Below, in pieces: positions 345 through 47,321 of a DNA stretch of 64,000 bases (positions are counted from its first letter, which is position 1; the number at the start of each line of letters is the position of its first letter). The position numbers were made by a program, and so were the translations under genes. The DNA is taken from the NCBI RefSeq assembly GCF_018614075.1, contig NZ_JAGGOZ010000016.1, positions 1 through 64,000 of the forward strand, read 5' to 3'. The notes beneath the pieces were generated by a model, which saw only the letters and a list, made by a program, of their open reading frames with translations, was not told the DNA's origin and searched no databases. The DNA is from Streptomyces sp. ISL-94 (GTDB lineage Bacteria; Actinomycetota; Actinomycetes; Streptomycetales; Streptomycetaceae).

Positions 345-1280
345 TCAGACGAAGACCGCGAGGGACTTGGCCTTGCCGCCCTTGCTCTCCACGAGCCCGA
401 GCAGCGTTCCGTCCGGCCCGTACACCGCCACCGTCTGGCCGGCGGCGTACGCGTCCGGCATCTCGATCCGCACGCCGTTGGCGAGCAGCGAGGCGCGCCG
501 GGCGTCCAGGTCCCAGCGCGGGAAGGCCGCGGCCGCCGCCTCGCCGATCGGCATGACGGTCAGCTCCTGCTGGAGCTGGTCCAGCGTCCGGGCCAGGTCG
601 AGCTTGTACGGGCCCACCCGCGTGCGCCGCAGCGCCGTGAGGTGCCCTCCGACGCCGAGGCCGGCGCCCAGGTCGCGGGCCAGCGCCCGGATGTACGTAC
701 CGCTGGAGCAGACGACGGAGACGACGAGGTCGACGACCTTGGTGCCGTCCTCGGCCTCCGCCTCCCGCATGTCGTACACCTGGAACGACGAGACGGTCAC
801 CGGGCGGGCCGGGATCTCGAAGTCCTCGCCGTCCCGCGCCCGCTTGTAGGAGCGCACGCCCTTGATCTTGATGGCGCTGACCTTGGACGGAACCTGCATG
901 ATCTCGCCGGTCAGCTTCGCGATCTCCGCGTCCACGCCCTCCCGGGTGACCCCGGCGGCATCCGTGGAGGAGGTGATCTCGCCCTCGGCGTCGTCCGTCA
1001 GGGTGTTCTGGCCCAGGCGGATCGTGCCGAGATACTCCTTCTCCGTGAGCGCGAGGTGGCCGAGGAGCTTGGTGGCCTTCTCGACGCCCAGGACCAGCAC
1101 GCCCGTCGCCATCGGGTCGAGCGTGCCGGCGTGCCCCACGCGGCGGGTCTTGGCGATCCCGCGCATCTTGGCGACCACGTCGTGCGACGTGAAGCCGGAC
1201 GGCTTGTCGACGATGACCAGGCCTCCCCCGGCCTCCGGCCGGGGGGTGCCCCCAGGAGTCCTCCCTGCGTTGGTGCTCAT
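345..1280 (-). CDS. truB: tRNA pseudouridine(55) synthase TruB
   Basis: This 311-residue protein isomerises uridine 55 in the T-loop of tRNAs to pseudouridine. The family signature GHAGTLDPMATG is present with the catalytic Asp at residue 55, and the KPSGFTSHDVV motif lies before it. Residues 1-20 are a Gly/Pro-rich extension before the conserved LVIVDKPSG start of the fold. The ATG at 1278-1280 overlaps the rbfA stop in an ATGA arrangement, so the two genes are probably translationally coupled. It is the last gene of the rimP-nusA-ylxR-infB-DUF503-rbfA-truB operon. Bacterial Y RNAs with tRNA-like T-loops are reported substrates of tRNA-modifying enzymes, so the RNAs near 45.3 kb are possible additional targets (inference). 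Confidence 0.97.
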   Translation of the reverse strand: MSTNAGRTPGGTPRPEAGGGLVIVDKPSGFTSHDVVAKMRGIAKTRRVGHAGTLDPMATGVLVLGVEKATKLLGHLALTEKEYLGTIRLGQNTLTDDAEGEITSSTDAAGVTREGVDAEIAKLTGEIMQVPSKVSAIKIKGVRSYKRARDGEDFEIPARPVTVSSFQVYDMREAEAEDGTKVVDLVVSVVCSSGTYIRALARDLGAGLGVGGHLTALRRTRVGPYKLDLARTLDQLQQELTVMPIGEAAAAAFPRWDLDARRASLLANGVRIEMPDAYAAGQTVAVYGPDGTLLGLVESKGGKAKSLAVFV

Positions 1281-7585: not shown

Positions 7586-8152
7586 GTGCCCTGGACCCTG
7601 CCACCCCGGCCCTCGCGGAGGAGCCTGCTCGCCGGTGCCGCCGGCGCGGCCGGTGCCGCACTGCTCACCGCGTGCTCCGACGGCCCCTCGCCCGACGGTG
7701 ACACCGCGATTCCACTCGAACGGCGGATGCGCGAGGCGGCCGTTCGTGACAGTGGGCGACTGCTGGAACGTTACGACGCCACGGCCGCGGCCCATCCGGC
7801 CCTGGCGGAGCGGCTCGCCCCGCTGCGCGGCGCCGTCGCCGCCCATGCGGCGGCCCTGGCCCCCACCCCCTCGGGCTCGCCGTCCGCGTCCCGTTCCGCG
7901 GCCCCGTCCCCGGCCCCGTCCTCGTCCGGTGCCACGGGGGTGGCAGCGCCCGCGACCGGCCCCGAGCCGGTGCCGGCCCAGGCCGAGGACGCCCTGAGCG
8001 CCCTGGCCGACGCCGAGCGCAGCCTCGCGGAGGCCCGGACCATCGACCTGGCCGGGGCCCCGGGGGAGCTGGCCCGGTTGCTGGCCTCGGTGGCCGCCTG
8101 CGGTGCCGTACACGCCCATCTGCTGACCTCGACCCCGGGAGCCAAGCCGTGA
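7586..8152 (+). CDS. Putative secreted lipoprotein
   Basis: No enzymatic family is recognised. The protein starts with a basic RRS stretch, a hydrophobic Ala/Gly helix and the lipobox LTAC (Cys30 if the GTG at 7586 is the start), so it should be lipid-anchored on the outside of the membrane. Twin arginines at residues 11-12 suggest the Tat route. The mature part (about 158 residues) has two Ala-rich helical segments separated by a Ser/Pro linker (about residues 95-130). The frame is open further upstream, but GTG at 7586 has a GAGGAC sequence before it and places the signal peptide at the N-terminus. Its stop overlaps the next start (GTGA), so it is coupled to the ferritin-like gene. Start choice is moderately certain. 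Confidence 0.7.
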   Translation: MPWTLPPRPSRRSLLAGAAGAAGAALLTACSDGPSPDGDTAIPLERRMREAAVRDSGRLLERYDATAAAHPALAERLAPLRGAVAAHAAALAPTPSGSPSASRSAAPSPAPSSSGATGVAAPATGPEPVPAQAEDALSALADAERSLAEARTIDLAGAPGELARLLASVAACGAVHAHLLTSTPGAKP

Positions 8153-34620: not shown

Positions 34621-34701
34621 TGTGAAGAAGGTGTGGGGGGCCGATGGCGGGAGCGCGTTCCCGCTGTCGGTCCCCTTTTCTCTGCCGTACGGTTTCTGCA
34701 G

Positions 34702-35490
34702 ATGAGTGAGACACCCCGCTCCCGGGAAATCGGGGGCGACACCAGTACCGGGCTTCCCCAGCGCCGTATTGGGCATGCGTTCGCGCACACTCCTCACCGA
34801 TCGGACGGCCGTCCGCCCCAAACCCCCCGGGGCGTGCGGCAACCCGATCCGGGCGGCCGTCCCGGAACCATCCCCCCTGTTCCGGGACGGCCGGCCATCA
34901 TCCGGCCCGCCGTCTGCCTGGCCGCCTTGTCTCTGACGGCCTTCGCCCTGATCACCTGGCAGGTCCTGGTCGCGGGCCCCCTGCTGTCCCCCGACGAGCG
35001 CCTCAGCCGCGCCGTCGTCCGCTCCGTCCCGGACGCCGTCACCGAGCGCCTGTCGGACCTCGGCAACATCCCGGTCGCGCTCCCCGTCCTGGTCCTCGCG
35101 ATCGCGTACGCCGCCTGGCGCGGCCACCGCCCCGGCGCGGCGGCCGCGGCCCTGGCCATGGCCCTGGTGCCGGCCCTGATCGTCCCGCTCAAGGAGTGGA
35201 CCGCCCGCCCGGGCCCCCTGGAGCCCTGGGCCGCCGGCTACTACCCCTCGGGCCACACCGCCACCTCGGCCGTCGCCTACATCGCCGCGGCCCTGCTGAT
35301 CCGCCCGTACACCCGCCGCGGCTGGCCGACAGCCGCCGCCCTCCTGCTGACGGCCGCCACGGCCGCCGGCCTGATCGTCCGCGGCTGGCACTGGCCGCTC
35401 GACGTCCTGGCCAGCCTGCTGCTCTGCACGCCCCTGCTGCTGGCCGTCCGATGGGCCGTACGGCGCCGCAGTGTCAGGCCCTCCGGCTAG
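34702..35490 (+). CDS. PAP2-family membrane phosphatase
   Basis: This protein of about 262 residues carries the three acid-phosphatase motifs: KEWTARPGP (K-x6-RP type), PSGHT, and RGWHWPLDVLAS with the catalytic His and Asp. Six membrane helices flank and contain them, beginning near residue 80. The first 75 residues are Pro/Arg-rich and probably cytoplasmic. Members dephosphorylate lipid phosphates such as undecaprenyl diphosphate or phosphatidate. ATG 34702 is one choice among several; the ribosome-binding site is weak, and a later start is possible. Its stop overlaps that of the convergent chitinase pseudogene (CTAG). Confidence 0.82.
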   Translation: MSETPRSREIGGDTSTGLPQRRIGHAFAHTPHRSDGRPPQTPRGVRQPDPGGRPGTIPPVPGRPAIIRPAVCLAALSLTAFALITWQVLVAGPLLSPDERLSRAVVRSVPDAVTERLSDLGNIPVALPVLVLAIAYAAWRGHRPGAAAAALAMALVPALIVPLKEWTARPGPLEPWAAGYYPSGHTATSAVAYIAAALLIRPYTRRGWPTAAALLLTAATAAGLIVRGWHWPLDVLASLLLCTPLLLAVRWAVRRRSVRPSG

Positions 35491-45278: not shown

Positions 45279-45284
45279 TAACGT
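45279..45284 (+). promoter_or_regulatory. Probable -10 element of the Y-RNA array
   Basis: TAACGT ends six bases before 45291, where the outer helix of the first RNA begins, the distance expected for a -10 box and start site. The -35 region is not convincing, and a GC-rich hairpin (GGCGCC at both ends, about 45259-45278) occupies the spacer. Confidence 0.45.
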
Positions 45285-45290
45285 GATCCT

Positions 45291-45426
45291 TGTCCAGGTG
45301 CGCAGGCGAGACATACTTCCACTCTTCATGGGGCGGTCGCGGGTTCGAGTCTCGTCACCGGCTTCCGGCCGGTGTAGCTCAGTTGGCAGAGCACCACGTG
45401 GTTTCGCCGAACTCGATCTCTGGACA
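45291..45426 (+). ncRNA. Y-RNA-like RNA 1 with permuted tRNA mimic
   Basis: The outer helix is TGTCCA (45291-45296) with TGGACA (45421-45426). An internal loop follows, with GGTGCGCA on the 5' side and ACTCGATCTC on the 3' side. Helix 2 pairs GGCGAGA (45305-45311) with TTTCGCC (45402-45408). Inside lies a circularly permuted tRNA: T-arm GCGGG-TTCGAGT-CTCGT (45339-45355), acceptor 3' strand CACCGGC (45356-45362), loop TTCCG, acceptor 5' strand GCCGGTG (45368-45374), TA, then D-arm GCTC-AGTTGGCA-GAGC (45377-45392). A short anticodon-stem stub (CATGG 45327 with CCACG 45394) joins it to the Y stem. The pieces closely resemble a real tRNA (GCCGGTGTAGCTCAGTTGG start) but in reversed order, with no anticodon and no CCA end. 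The next gene but two RNAs is Ro60. Confidence 0.88.
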
Positions 45427-45439
45427 CCCACGTCACGCA

Positions 45440-45511
45440 CCTCCCGGTGCGCAGGCTGCGGCTCCTTCTTTTGCAAAGACACCAGGCCGCCGCCACCTTG
45501 ATCTCGGGAGG
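45440..45511 (+). ncRNA. Y-RNA-like RNA 2, without tRNA mimic
   Basis: Outer helix CCTCCCG (45440-45446) pairs with CGGGAGG (45505-45511). The internal loop has the same invariant GTGCGCA (45447-45453) and TTGATCT on the 3' strand. Helix 2 is GGCTGCGGC (45454-45462) with GCCGCCGCC (45486-45494), interrupted by a single mismatch at the same place as in RNA 3. The apical part is only a small hairpin, TCTTT-TGC-AAAGA. At 72 nt this is a minimal Y RNA with the predicted Ro60-binding stem but no effector module. It could be an independent RNA or a processed piece of one long transcript. Confidence 0.72.
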
Positions 45512-45525
45512 CCGTGCGTGGGGGA

Positions 45526-45675
45526 TGCCCGGTGCGCAGGCAGCGGTTACTTCGGGGACCCGGAGGTCGTGGGTTCGAACCCCACCCGGCCCCTCGCCCT
45601 CAAGGGCGACGGCCGGTGGAGCAGCCAGGCAGCTCGCCAGGTACAAGGTCCGCCGCCGACTCCTGATCTCGGGCA
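45526..45675 (+). ncRNA. Y-RNA-like RNA 3 with permuted tRNA mimic and extended acceptor arm
   Basis: Outer helix TGCCCG (45526-45531) pairs with CGGGCA (45670-45675). The internal loop has GTGCGCA and TGATCT. Helix 2 is GGCAGCGG (45539-45546) with CCGCCGCC (45650-45657). The permuted tRNA core has a perfect T-arm GTGGG-TTCGAAC-CCCAC (45569-45585), acceptor 3' strand CCGGCC (45586-45591), an extra hairpin TCGCCC-TCAA-GGGCGA (45594-45609), acceptor 5' strand GGCCGG (45611-45616), TG, and D-arm GAGC-AGCCAGGCA-GCTC (45619-45635) with the conserved GG. A stub CCCGG (45559) with CCAGG (45637) replaces the anticodon stem. It ends 50 bp before the Ro60 start codon. Confidence 0.88.
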
Positions 45676-45725: not shown

Positions 45726-47321
45726 ATGGCTCGTTTCAACCTGCGCGCGCTCACGTCCGAGCCCGCCCCGCCCACTTCGCCCGTCCGCTCGACCCGCCGC
45801 TCCCGCACCCGGGAAGGCGGACCGGGCCGCGAACGGGATGCCCGCTCCGAGCTGTTCCTGCTCGCGGTCGCCAACTTCGTGACCCAGCGGACCTTCTACG
45901 AGAGCGGCGAAGCCCGCGACGACCGCTTCGGCGCGCTCGTGCGCCGGCTCGCGGTCGAGGATCCCGCGTGGACCGCCGGCCTGCTCGGCTGGCTGCGCGG
46001 GGACGCGAACATGCGGACCGCCTCGCTCGTCGGCGCGGCCGAGTACGTCAAGGCGCGGCTCGACGCGGGCGCCGCCGACGGGCCGTCGAACCGCCAGGTC
46101 GTGGACTCCGTACTGCGGCGGGCGGACGAGCCCGGCGAGCTGCTGGCCTACTGGACGGCGACGTACGGCCGCAACGTGCCCAAGCCGGTCAAGCGCGGCA
46201 TCGCCGACGCCGTACGCCGCCTCTACTCCGCCACCTCGCTGCTGAAGTACGACACCGCCTCCGCGCGGCGGGGATACCGCTTCGGCGACGTCCTCAACCT
46301 CGTGCACGCCTCCCCCGACCCGGCCAAGCCCTGGCAGGGCGAGCTGTTCCGCTACGCCCTCGACCGCCGGCACAGCCCCGAGACCGCGCAGGTCCCGGAC
46401 GGCAACCGGACCCTGGCCGCCCACCGGTCGCTGATGGAGCTGCCGGTCTCCGAGCGTCGCGGGGTCGTCACCGCACCGGACGGCGCCGAGCGCCTCGCGG
46501 AGGCGGGCATGACGTGGGAGGCGCTGGCCGGGTGGCTGCAGGGGCCGATGGACGCGGCCGCCTGGGAGGCGGTCATCCCGTCCATGGGCGCGATGGCGCT
46601 GCTGCGCAACCTGCGCAACTTCGACCAGGCCGGGGTTTCGGACGAGGTGGCCTCGCGGGTCGCGGCGAAGATCTCCGACCCGGAGGTCGTGGCCCGGTCG
46701 CGGCAGTTCCCCTTCCGCTACCTGGCCGCCTACCAGCACGCGCCCTCGCTGCGCTGGGCGTACCCGCTGGAGGAGGCGCTCGGGCACTCGCTGGCCAACG
46801 TACCGGCGCTGCCGGGCCGGACGCTGGTCCTCGTCGACCGTTCCGGGTCGATGTGGTCCCCGCTGTCGGAGCGCTCGCAGCTCAACCGGGCCGACGCGGC
46901 GGCCGTCTTCGGGGCGGCGGTGGCCCTGCGCGCCGAGCACGGCGACCTGGTGCAGTTCGGCTCGGACAGCCGCGCCGTTCCCTACACCCGGGGCCAGTCC
47001 GTGCTGAAGGTGCTGGAGCGGTTCGGGAGCCTCGGCGGCACCTACACGGCCAAGGCCGTGCGGGAGCACTACCGGGGCCACGACCGGGTGCTGATCGTCA
47101 CCGACGAGCAGGCCGCCTCGTACGGTTACGGCGGAGACCCGACGGTGGAGGTTGCGGAGACGGTCCCGGTGTACACCTGGAACCTGGCCGGCTACCGGGT
47201 GGGCCACGCGCCGTCCGGTTCCGCGAACCGGCACGTCTTCGGCGGGCTCACCGATGCGGCCTTCCGCATGGTGTCCCTGATCGAGGGCGGCCGGAACGCC
47301 GACTGGCCGTGGGCGGTCTGA
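45726..47321 (+). CDS. rsr: Ro60 orthologue (TROVE domain, Rsr)
   Basis: This 531-residue protein is a bacterial Ro60: an alpha-helical HEAT-like TROVE ring (about residues 25-360) that binds Y RNA outside and single-stranded RNA ends in its central hole, then a von Willebrand A domain with an intact MIDAS, DRSGSMWS at residues 371-378. Family signs include RSELFLLAVANFVTQRTFYE, MRTASLVGAAEYVKARL and PVKRGIADAVRRLY. ATG 45726 follows GGGGGG. In Deinococcus, Ro60 and a Y RNA are known to tether polynucleotide phosphorylase for structured-RNA decay. The three RNAs immediately upstream are its probable partners. No rtcB or RNase gene adjoins it here. Confidence 0.95.
   Translation: MARFNLRALTSEPAPPTSPVRSTRRSRTREGGPGRERDARSELFLLAVANFVTQRTFYESGEARDDRFGALVRRLAVEDPAWTAGLLGWLRGDANMRTASLVGAAEYVKARLDAGAADGPSNRQVVDSVLRRADEPGELLAYWTATYGRNVPKPVKRGIADAVRRLYSATSLLKYDTASARRGYRFGDVLNLVHASPDPAKPWQGELFRYALDRRHSPETAQVPDGNRTLAAHRSLMELPVSERRGVVTAPDGAERLAEAGMTWEALAGWLQGPMDAAAWEAVIPSMGAMALLRNLRNFDQAGVSDEVASRVAAKISDPEVVARSRQFPFRYLAAYQHAPSLRWAYPLEEALGHSLANVPALPGRTLVLVDRSGSMWSPLSERSQLNRADAAAVFGAAVALRAEHGDLVQFGSDSRAVPYTRGQSVLKVLERFGSLGGTYTAKAVREHYRGHDRVLIVTDEQAASYGYGGDPTVEVAETVPVYTWNLAGYRVGHAPSGSANRHVFGGLTDAAFRMVSLIEGGRNADWPWAV

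What the first reader, a model, noticed from the sequence alone, without database searches (positions are those of the whole stretch)
45312..45401. RNA 1 contains a circularly permuted tRNA
The order is T-arm (GCGGG-TTCGAGT-CTCGT), acceptor 3' strand CACCGGC, a 5-base loop, acceptor 5' strand GCCGGTG, TA, then D-arm GCTC-AGTTGGCA-GAGC. All seven acceptor pairs are Watson-Crick, and the T-loop and D-loop residues that form the tRNA elbow are present. The anticodon arm is reduced to a stub joined to the Y stem and the tRNA ends are closed by a loop. This is an acceptor-capped tRNA mimic, so tRNA-modifying enzymes such as TruB (encoded in this window) might act on it.
Basis: partly seen in the sequence, partly recalled or inferred. 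Interest (0 to 1): 0.88.

Follow-up and report, generated by a model that had tools for sequence, protein, structure and literature searches.

The report
Y RNA carrying a permuted whole tRNA
Just upstream of a bacterial Ro60 gene (rsr) in Streptomyces lies a small Y RNA that carries a rearranged but essentially complete copy of a tRNA, including an anticodon-like arm absent from the standard model of bacterial Y RNAs, and a sister Y RNA nearby has swapped in different tRNAs in different species.

Summary
Window 45312-45401 lies in a Y RNA (RNA A, 45292-45426), the first of three tandem Y RNAs (A, B, C) upstream of rsr, a Ro60/TROVE gene. A circularly permuted tRNA-like domain is already the hallmark of bacterial YrlA RNAs, which are modified by TruB and DusA, so the core idea is known. 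The Rfam YrlA model matches here below its cut-off.

In 61 Streptomyces RNAs, RNAalifold recovers all four tRNA arms with canonical spacing, including a covarying 5-bp/7-nt anticodon-like hairpin (C32, U33 and A38 invariant; triplet variable) and a 5-nt variable loop. The break is between tRNA positions 26 and 27. This form recurs in other genera, where it is usually closest to tRNA-Asn read across a tandem gene junction.

RNA C's module resembles initiator tRNA in the window, but tRNA-Leu (with long variable arm), Arg or Lys in other species. Its type is scattered on the rsr tree, so the module is swapped.

Expression, Rsr binding and modification are inferred. The original YrlA papers were not readable here, so novelty is provisional.

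The parts
45279..45284 (+). -10-like hexamer TAACGT, 7 nt before the start of RNA A; a TAnnnT hexamer precedes RNA A in many homologues
   Evidence: sequence; the sigma-70 consensus scan found nothing, so this is tentative
45292..45426 (+). RNA A ('RNA 1'): YrlA-type Y RNA; outer Y stem 45292-45297 with 45420-45425, inner Y stem 45305-45312 with 45401-45408
   Evidence: Rfam YrlA 34 bits (E 1.4e-5, below gathering); 61-species alignment and consensus structure; full-length model match 138 bits
45317..45333 (+). anticodon-like arm UUCCA-CUCUUCA-UGGGG (5 bp, 7-nt loop; C32, U33, A38 conserved; triplet CUU at 45324-45326)
   Evidence: RNAalifold; stem covaries CCA/UGG, CGA/UCG, CCG/CGG
45334..45338 (+). 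variable loop CGGUC, canonical 5 nt with G46 and C48
45339..45355 (+). T arm GCGGG-UUCGAGU-CUCGU (U54, U55, C56, A58 present)
45356..45374 (+). acceptor stem closed by a 5-nt loop: CACCGGC-UUCCG-GCCGGUG
   Evidence: 4 of 7 pairs have double changes
45375..45392 (+). linker UA (positions 8-9) and D arm GCUC-AGUUGGCA-GAGC (A14, G15, G18, G19)
45440..45511 (+). RNA B: Y RNA-like hairpin without a tRNA-like module
   Evidence: fold z -2.57; present upstream of rsr in most loci
45526..45675 (+). RNA C ('RNA 2'): second YrlA-type RNA; module closest to initiator tRNA-fMet, acceptor extended by a hairpin; Y stem joins at the anticodon stem
   Evidence: Rfam YrlA 26.9 bits; isotype ranking; consensus fold of elongator-type RNA C homologues
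45726..47321 (+). rsr: Ro60-like TROVE-domain protein (531 aa)
   Evidence: Pfam TROVE E 4.6e-14; only rsr in the genome

Best explanation
RNA A is a YrlA-type bacterial Y RNA, partner of the Rsr (Ro60) protein encoded 300 nt downstream. Its lower helix is the Ro-binding Y stem. Its head is a circularly permuted but complete tRNA cloverleaf (order: anticodon-like arm, 5-nt variable loop, T arm, acceptor 3' strand, short loop, acceptor 5' strand, D arm), inserted so that the Y stem leaves the tRNA between positions 26 and 27. The head probably folds into an L-shaped tRNA elbow, is modified by TruB and Dus, and serves as the tRNA-like effector domain of an Rsr particle that handles structured or damaged RNA. 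The anticodon-like arm extends the mimicry to proteins that hold the anticodon arm. The module most likely originated from the junction of two tandem tRNA genes (anticodon arm of the first to D arm of the second), probably tRNA-Asn, placed in the loop of a simple Y hairpin such as RNA B. Shown: sequence, conserved and covarying structure, synteny with rsr, match to tandem tRNA junctions. Inferred: transcription, Rsr binding, modification, function and origin.
For: TROVE gene adjacent. Rfam YrlA matches to both RNAs, E 1.4e-5 and 1.6e-3 in the 701-base search. Consensus fold of 61 RNAs, without any hint, gives all four tRNA arms with canonical 2-nt (8-9), 5-nt (variable loop) and 0-nt (T/acceptor) spacing. 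99.7% cells paired, 12 pairs with double changes, slid controls 0-1. Loop positions C32, U33, A38 are invariant columns of the alignment. Residues for the tRNA tertiary pairs U8-A14, G15-C48, G18-U55 and G19-C56 are all present in the window sequence. rsr lies near RNA A in 32 of 34 further model-matched loci, and the anticodon-like arm recurs in more distant genomes. The RNA A model matches the tandem tRNA-Asn pair of this genome from nt 27 of the first gene to nt 26 of the second, 61 bits. In 6 of 8 arm-bearing RNA A homologues from more distant genomes tRNA-Asn is the best tRNA in this linear order. YrlA binding of Rsr and PNPase and modification by TruB/DusA: PMC8394870.
Against: No expression data. 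Rfam scores are below the gathering cut-off (34 and 26.9 against 69). Single-sequence folding of the window RNA is only mildly better than shuffles (z -1.4) and prefers a shifted hairpin over the anticodon-like arm. Two close relatives (L009, L016) lack that arm, so it is dispensable. The 5' half of its stem overlaps the conserved UACUUC element of the Y stem, which Rsr may bind instead. The tandem-junction match also means the YrlA and RNA A models give false positives on tandem tRNAs.
Confidence: 0.8

Rival explanations
1. It is a permuted tRNA gene of the algal or archaeal sort: the RNA is cut, circularised and matured to a translating tRNA.
For: Same order of halves; short acceptor loops (1-74 nt) occur in real permuted tRNA genes (PMC3978253); full cloverleaf with a 7-nt anticodon loop.
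Against: The ends at 26/27 run into a conserved, covarying Y stem, not into a known splice site. The triplet varies widely between species (32 changes of loop type over 61 RNAs on the rsr tree), which a decoding tRNA would not tolerate. C37 in the window is unusual for a tRNA. The genome has ordinary tRNAs for these codons, and permuted tRNA genes are reported from algae and archaea.
Confidence: 0.03
2. It is a decayed remnant of two tandem tRNA genes without function.
For: Tandem tRNA-Asn genes give the same arm order and match the YrlA and RNA A models.
Against: No tRNA halves flank it (ARAGORN finds none here). Compensatory changes in acceptor, T, anticodon-like and Y stems across 61 species. 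Conserved with rsr in most loci, also in more distant genomes.
Confidence: 0.03
3. The anticodon-like hairpin is only a linker hairpin whose loop resembles an anticodon loop by chance; RNA A is an ordinary YrlA.
For: Lost in L009 and L016; stem short with two U-G pairs; overlaps the UACUUC element; triplet not conserved.
Against: Exact 5-bp/7-nt geometry and a 5-nt variable loop to the T stem; C32, U33, A38 invariant while 34-36 vary; 48 of 61 loops equal real anticodon loops among the genome's tRNAs; same form in more distant genomes, with tRNA-Asn best in 6 of 8.
Confidence: 0.25
4. The anticodon-like arm with a changing triplet is a decoy for anticodon nucleases or other tRNA-attacking enzymes, and module swapping in RNA C is part of the same arms race.
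For: Triplet and module types turn over fast against the rsr tree. Competitive inhibition of an anticodon nuclease by YrlA was suggested for Salmonella (PMC7790460).
Against: No nuclease identified here; turnover could be drift plus recombination.
Confidence: 0.15

Closest known systems
YrlA bacterial Y RNA (Rfam RF02553; Salmonella YrlA structure PDB 6CU1 as cited in PMC8394870)
   Same: Ro-binding stem; permuted T arm, acceptor hairpin, D arm; encoded beside rsr; tRNA-like head reported to be modified by TruB and DusA
   Different: RNA A adds a full-size anticodon-like arm and canonical variable loop, moving the permutation point to 26/27; scores far below Rfam's cut-off; RNA C heads resemble different tRNAs in different species, including class II tRNA-Leu with a long variable arm
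Deinococcus Y RNA / Rsr-PNPase particle (RYPER; as described in PMC7790460 and PMC8394870)
   Same: rsr with Y RNA; the likely working partner
   Different: PNPase tethering not tested in Streptomyces; three tandem Y RNAs of two permutation forms plus one plain hairpin
Circularly permuted tRNA genes of algae and archaea (PMC3978253)
   Same: 3' half of the tRNA precedes the 5' half, joined by a short acceptor loop
   Different: those mature to translating tRNAs through bulge-helix-bulge processing and a circular intermediate; here the ends are held in a conserved Y stem
tmRNA
   Same: a stable RNA with a tRNA-like domain
   Different: the tRNA-like part is formed by the RNA's own 5' and 3' ends and is aminoacylated with alanine (PMC3985003 abstract; own knowledge); no Y stem or rsr link

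Membership tests
YrlA (bacterial Y RNA) | encoded next to a Ro60/rsr gene | tested here: met
   TROVE gene at 45726-47321; rsr close to RNA A in 32 of 34 further model-matched loci
YrlA (bacterial Y RNA) | tRNA-like domain in the order T arm, acceptor hairpin, D arm | tested here: met
YrlA (bacterial Y RNA) | long terminal stem pairing the 5' and 3' ends (Ro-binding stem) | tested here: met
   helices 1 and 2 of the consensus structure, 99.4-99.7% of cells paired
YrlA (bacterial Y RNA) | score at or above Rfam RF02553 gathering threshold (69 bits) | tested here: not met
   34.0 and 26.9 bits; this is a database threshold, not a biological definition
YrlA (bacterial Y RNA) | no separate anticodon arm (as in the Rfam consensus structure) | tested here: not met
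   7-nt-loop anticodon-like arm in 61 of 64 RNA A homologues; RNA C follows the classic form. I treat this as a variant, not as exclusion from the family
YrlA (bacterial Y RNA) | binds Rsr; modified by TruB and Dus | not testable with these tools
   TruB and Dus genes are in the genome
Circularly permuted tRNA gene | 3' half precedes 5' half | tested here: met
Circularly permuted tRNA gene | bulge-helix-bulge at the junction of the termini | not tested
   no explicit search was run; the termini lie in a conserved Y stem instead
Circularly permuted tRNA gene | matures to a functional tRNA of fixed anticodon | not testable with these tools
   variable triplet between species argues against it

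The most novel reading that the evidence does not exclude
Actinobacterial Ro60 particles carry Y RNAs whose heads are whole tRNAs captured in permuted order from tandem tRNA gene junctions and repeatedly exchanged between tRNA families. RNA A presents a real anticodon arm, with a fast-changing triplet, that is recognised by anticodon-arm enzymes or nucleases, so the particle samples or shields the cell's tRNA pool.
Probability: 0.2. Interest if true: 0.85.

Novelty: new variant of a known kind. Interest (0 to 1): 0.62.

Why it matters
Bacterial Y RNAs are known tRNA mimics, but what the mimic is for is open. A genus-wide set with a complete permuted cloverleaf, a variable anticodon-like triplet and heads swapped between elongator, initiator and class II tRNAs makes this testable: it names which tRNA features are kept (elbow, acceptor, U33) and which are free (triplet, isotype). 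It also offers a simple genetic route, a tandem tRNA junction, by which a permuted tRNA can arise without RNA splicing.

Tried and rejected
A second YrlA hit in the genome (40.6 bits, G000:C67) proved to be the junction of two tandem tRNA-Asn genes, not a Y RNA; weak RNA A model hits covering only model positions 26-105 in other genomes were discounted for the same reason. Chen 2014, Wang 2018 and Sim 2018 on YrlA are not in the library. A search for Ro60 plus Streptomyces plus Y RNA papers gave none. No promoter or terminator consensus was found. Regular expressions first mis-typed some RNA C heads (L004, L008, L020, L035, L073); these were corrected before the tree counts. The expression used presupposes C32, U33 and A38, so their invariance is taken from the alignment columns and from the fact that the only three non-matching RNAs are L005 (6-nt loop) and L009, L016 (arm deleted). 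The last part of the script stopped on an indexing error after the results used here were printed. Isotype ranking of some very distant heads (L165, L170, L172 upstream copies) gave no clear winner.

Full report
Setting. The window is from a Streptomyces genome (contig C59 of the 7.4 Mb assembly). At 45726-47321 (+) lies a 531-aa TROVE-domain protein (Pfam E 4.6e-14), the bacterial Ro60 orthologue Rsr and the only one in the genome. The finding sits 300 nt upstream of it.

Observation. A scan of the + strand for this permuted order gave two hits, both upstream of rsr: 45339 (RNA A) and 45569 (RNA C). The minus strand gave one poor hit. Sixty shuffles gave one comparably strict hit.

What it is. 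At a relaxed threshold Rfam matches both RNAs to YrlA (RF02553; 34.0 bits, E 1.4e-5 and 26.9 bits, E 1.6e-3 in 701 bases), below the gathering score of 69. The order T arm, acceptor hairpin, D arm is the YrlA order, as the Rfam structure line shows. The review PMC8394870 states that YrlA is a substrate of DusA and TruB and cites a solved structure of Salmonella YrlA, 6CU1. TruB is in this window (690-1160, minus) and a Dus gene elsewhere in the genome.

Three Y RNAs. In 80 rsr loci of other Streptomyces the upstream region typically holds RNA A (GUCCAGGUGCG...CUCUGGAC, with tRNA-like head), RNA B (CCUCCCGGUGCG...CUCGGGAGG, plain hairpin) and RNA C (GCCCGGUGCG...CUCGGGC, with tRNA-like head). 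Some species have lost A, B or C.

The anticodon-like arm. Sixty-four RNA A sequences were extracted and 61 aligned. RNAalifold, given no hint, folds them into the Y stem plus four arms: UUCCA-CUNNNAA-UGGGG (5 bp, 7 nt), a 5-nt variable loop, T arm, acceptor hairpin, two nucleotides and D arm, that is, every arm and spacer of a canonical tRNA. Counting pairs: 99.7% of cells paired, 12 pairs with changes on both sides, 0-1 when partners are slid. In the anticodon-like stem the changes are CCA/UGG, CGA/UCG and CCG/CGG. Loop positions 32 (C), 33 (U) and 38 (A) are invariant alignment columns; 34-36 vary: CAU 16, GAU 12, CUU 11 plus 3 with C37 (the window among these), GUU 7 and others. Forty-eight of 61 loops equal anticodon loops of real ANN-decoding tRNAs listed (U36-A37-A38, the context of t6A modification, own knowledge). 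The window has CUCUUCA. Two relatives (L009, L016) lack the arm. RNA C is the classic form: its Y stem continues from a covarying 5-bp anticodon stem.

Reach. A covariance model of RNA A finds full-length matches in Streptomycetaceae and in other families of the class. Of 35 fetched loci one is the window's own; in 32 of the other 34 an rsr match lies within the 3 kb held. The arm-bearing form recurs in more distant genomes.

Origin. The only other YrlA-model hit in this genome is the junction of two tandem tRNA-Asn genes. The RNA A model matches the same place from nucleotide 27 of the first gene to 26 of the second, exactly the module's borders, with 61 bits. The genes are separated by a few bases, so the acceptor strands of neighbours can pair across a short loop. 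Compared in linear tandem order with 40 own tRNA sequences, the arm-bearing RNA A homologues of more distant genomes are closest to tRNA-Asn in 6 of 8 cases. I infer that the head came from a tandem tRNA junction. This also warns that YrlA models ring on tandem tRNAs.

Head swapping in RNA C. Un-permuted and compared with the genome's tRNAs, RNA C heads fall into distinct groups. Window, L001, L011, L014, L016 and L056 are best matched by initiator tRNA. For 17 of 18 of another group tRNA-Leu is best, with a Leu-type D arm and a long variable arm seen in the consensus fold. L019, L027 and L032 match tRNA-Arg(ACG) (L032: 37.4 against 19.7 for the next isotype). L004, L003, L006, L010 and L012 match tRNA-Lys(CTT). 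On the rsr tree the Leu type needs 11 changes among 35 rows of one clade, against 12.2 expected for shuffled labels, and the fMet type 6 changes for 6 rows: the head type is essentially uncoupled from the rsr lineage. Shared derived letters among Leu heads (mostly GGAAGAC where tRNA-Leu has GGCAGAC) suggest few captures followed by recombination between species (inference).

Function. By analogy with YrlA and the Rsr-PNPase particle (PMC7790460, PMC8394870), RNA A most likely docks on Rsr by its Y stem and presents a tRNA-like head. Whether that head tethers PNPase, gates Rsr or baits tRNA enzymes and nucleases is open. The complete cloverleaf makes anticodon-arm binders candidates.

Limits. 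No expression or binding data; single-sequence folding of the window RNA is unremarkable and prefers a shifted hairpin; the key YrlA papers were not readable, so I cannot exclude that parts of this were noted there.

Noticed in passing
window 45526-45675 (RNA C): Second YrlA-type RNA with an initiator-tRNA-like head and an acceptor extended by a GC-rich hairpin; head type is swapped between species (Leu, Arg, Lys, fMet).
   Followed up: yes
window 45440-45511 (RNA B): Plain Y RNA-like hairpin without a tRNA head between the two tRNA-like Y RNAs; some species have lost A, B or C.
   Followed up: partly
L081 1475-1628 (own genome, contig C67): Tandem tRNA-Asn genes separated by a few bases score 40.6 bits with the YrlA model and 61 bits with the RNA A model: a source of false positives and a possible origin of the module.
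   Followed up: yes
L066 (S. aurantiacus), acceptor loop of RNA C: The acceptor loop is expanded to about 50 nt made of near-repeats of GATGTGTCAGAATTC.
   Followed up: no
L172, L167, L166, L165 (more distant actinobacterial genomes): Several YrlA-like RNAs in tandem before rsr, with D arms resembling other tRNAs (TCGTCTAGTGGCC as in tRNA-Glu; TGGTGTAACGGCAGCA as in tRNA-Gln or Gly).
   Followed up: partly
window 34700-34805 (+): Match to Rfam Scr5676, a Streptomyces sRNA (68.6 bits).
   Followed up: no
window 7946-8032 (-): ARAGORN calls a tRNA-Leu(CAG) here that Rfam does not support; probably a false call in GC-rich sequence.
   Followed up: no
L025 and L033, upstream of rsr: In place of RNA A only a shortened stretch (CGTCCGGACGCGCAGGCAGGACCTGCTTCCG...) remains, apparently a truncated Y RNA without a tRNA head.
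   Followed up: no
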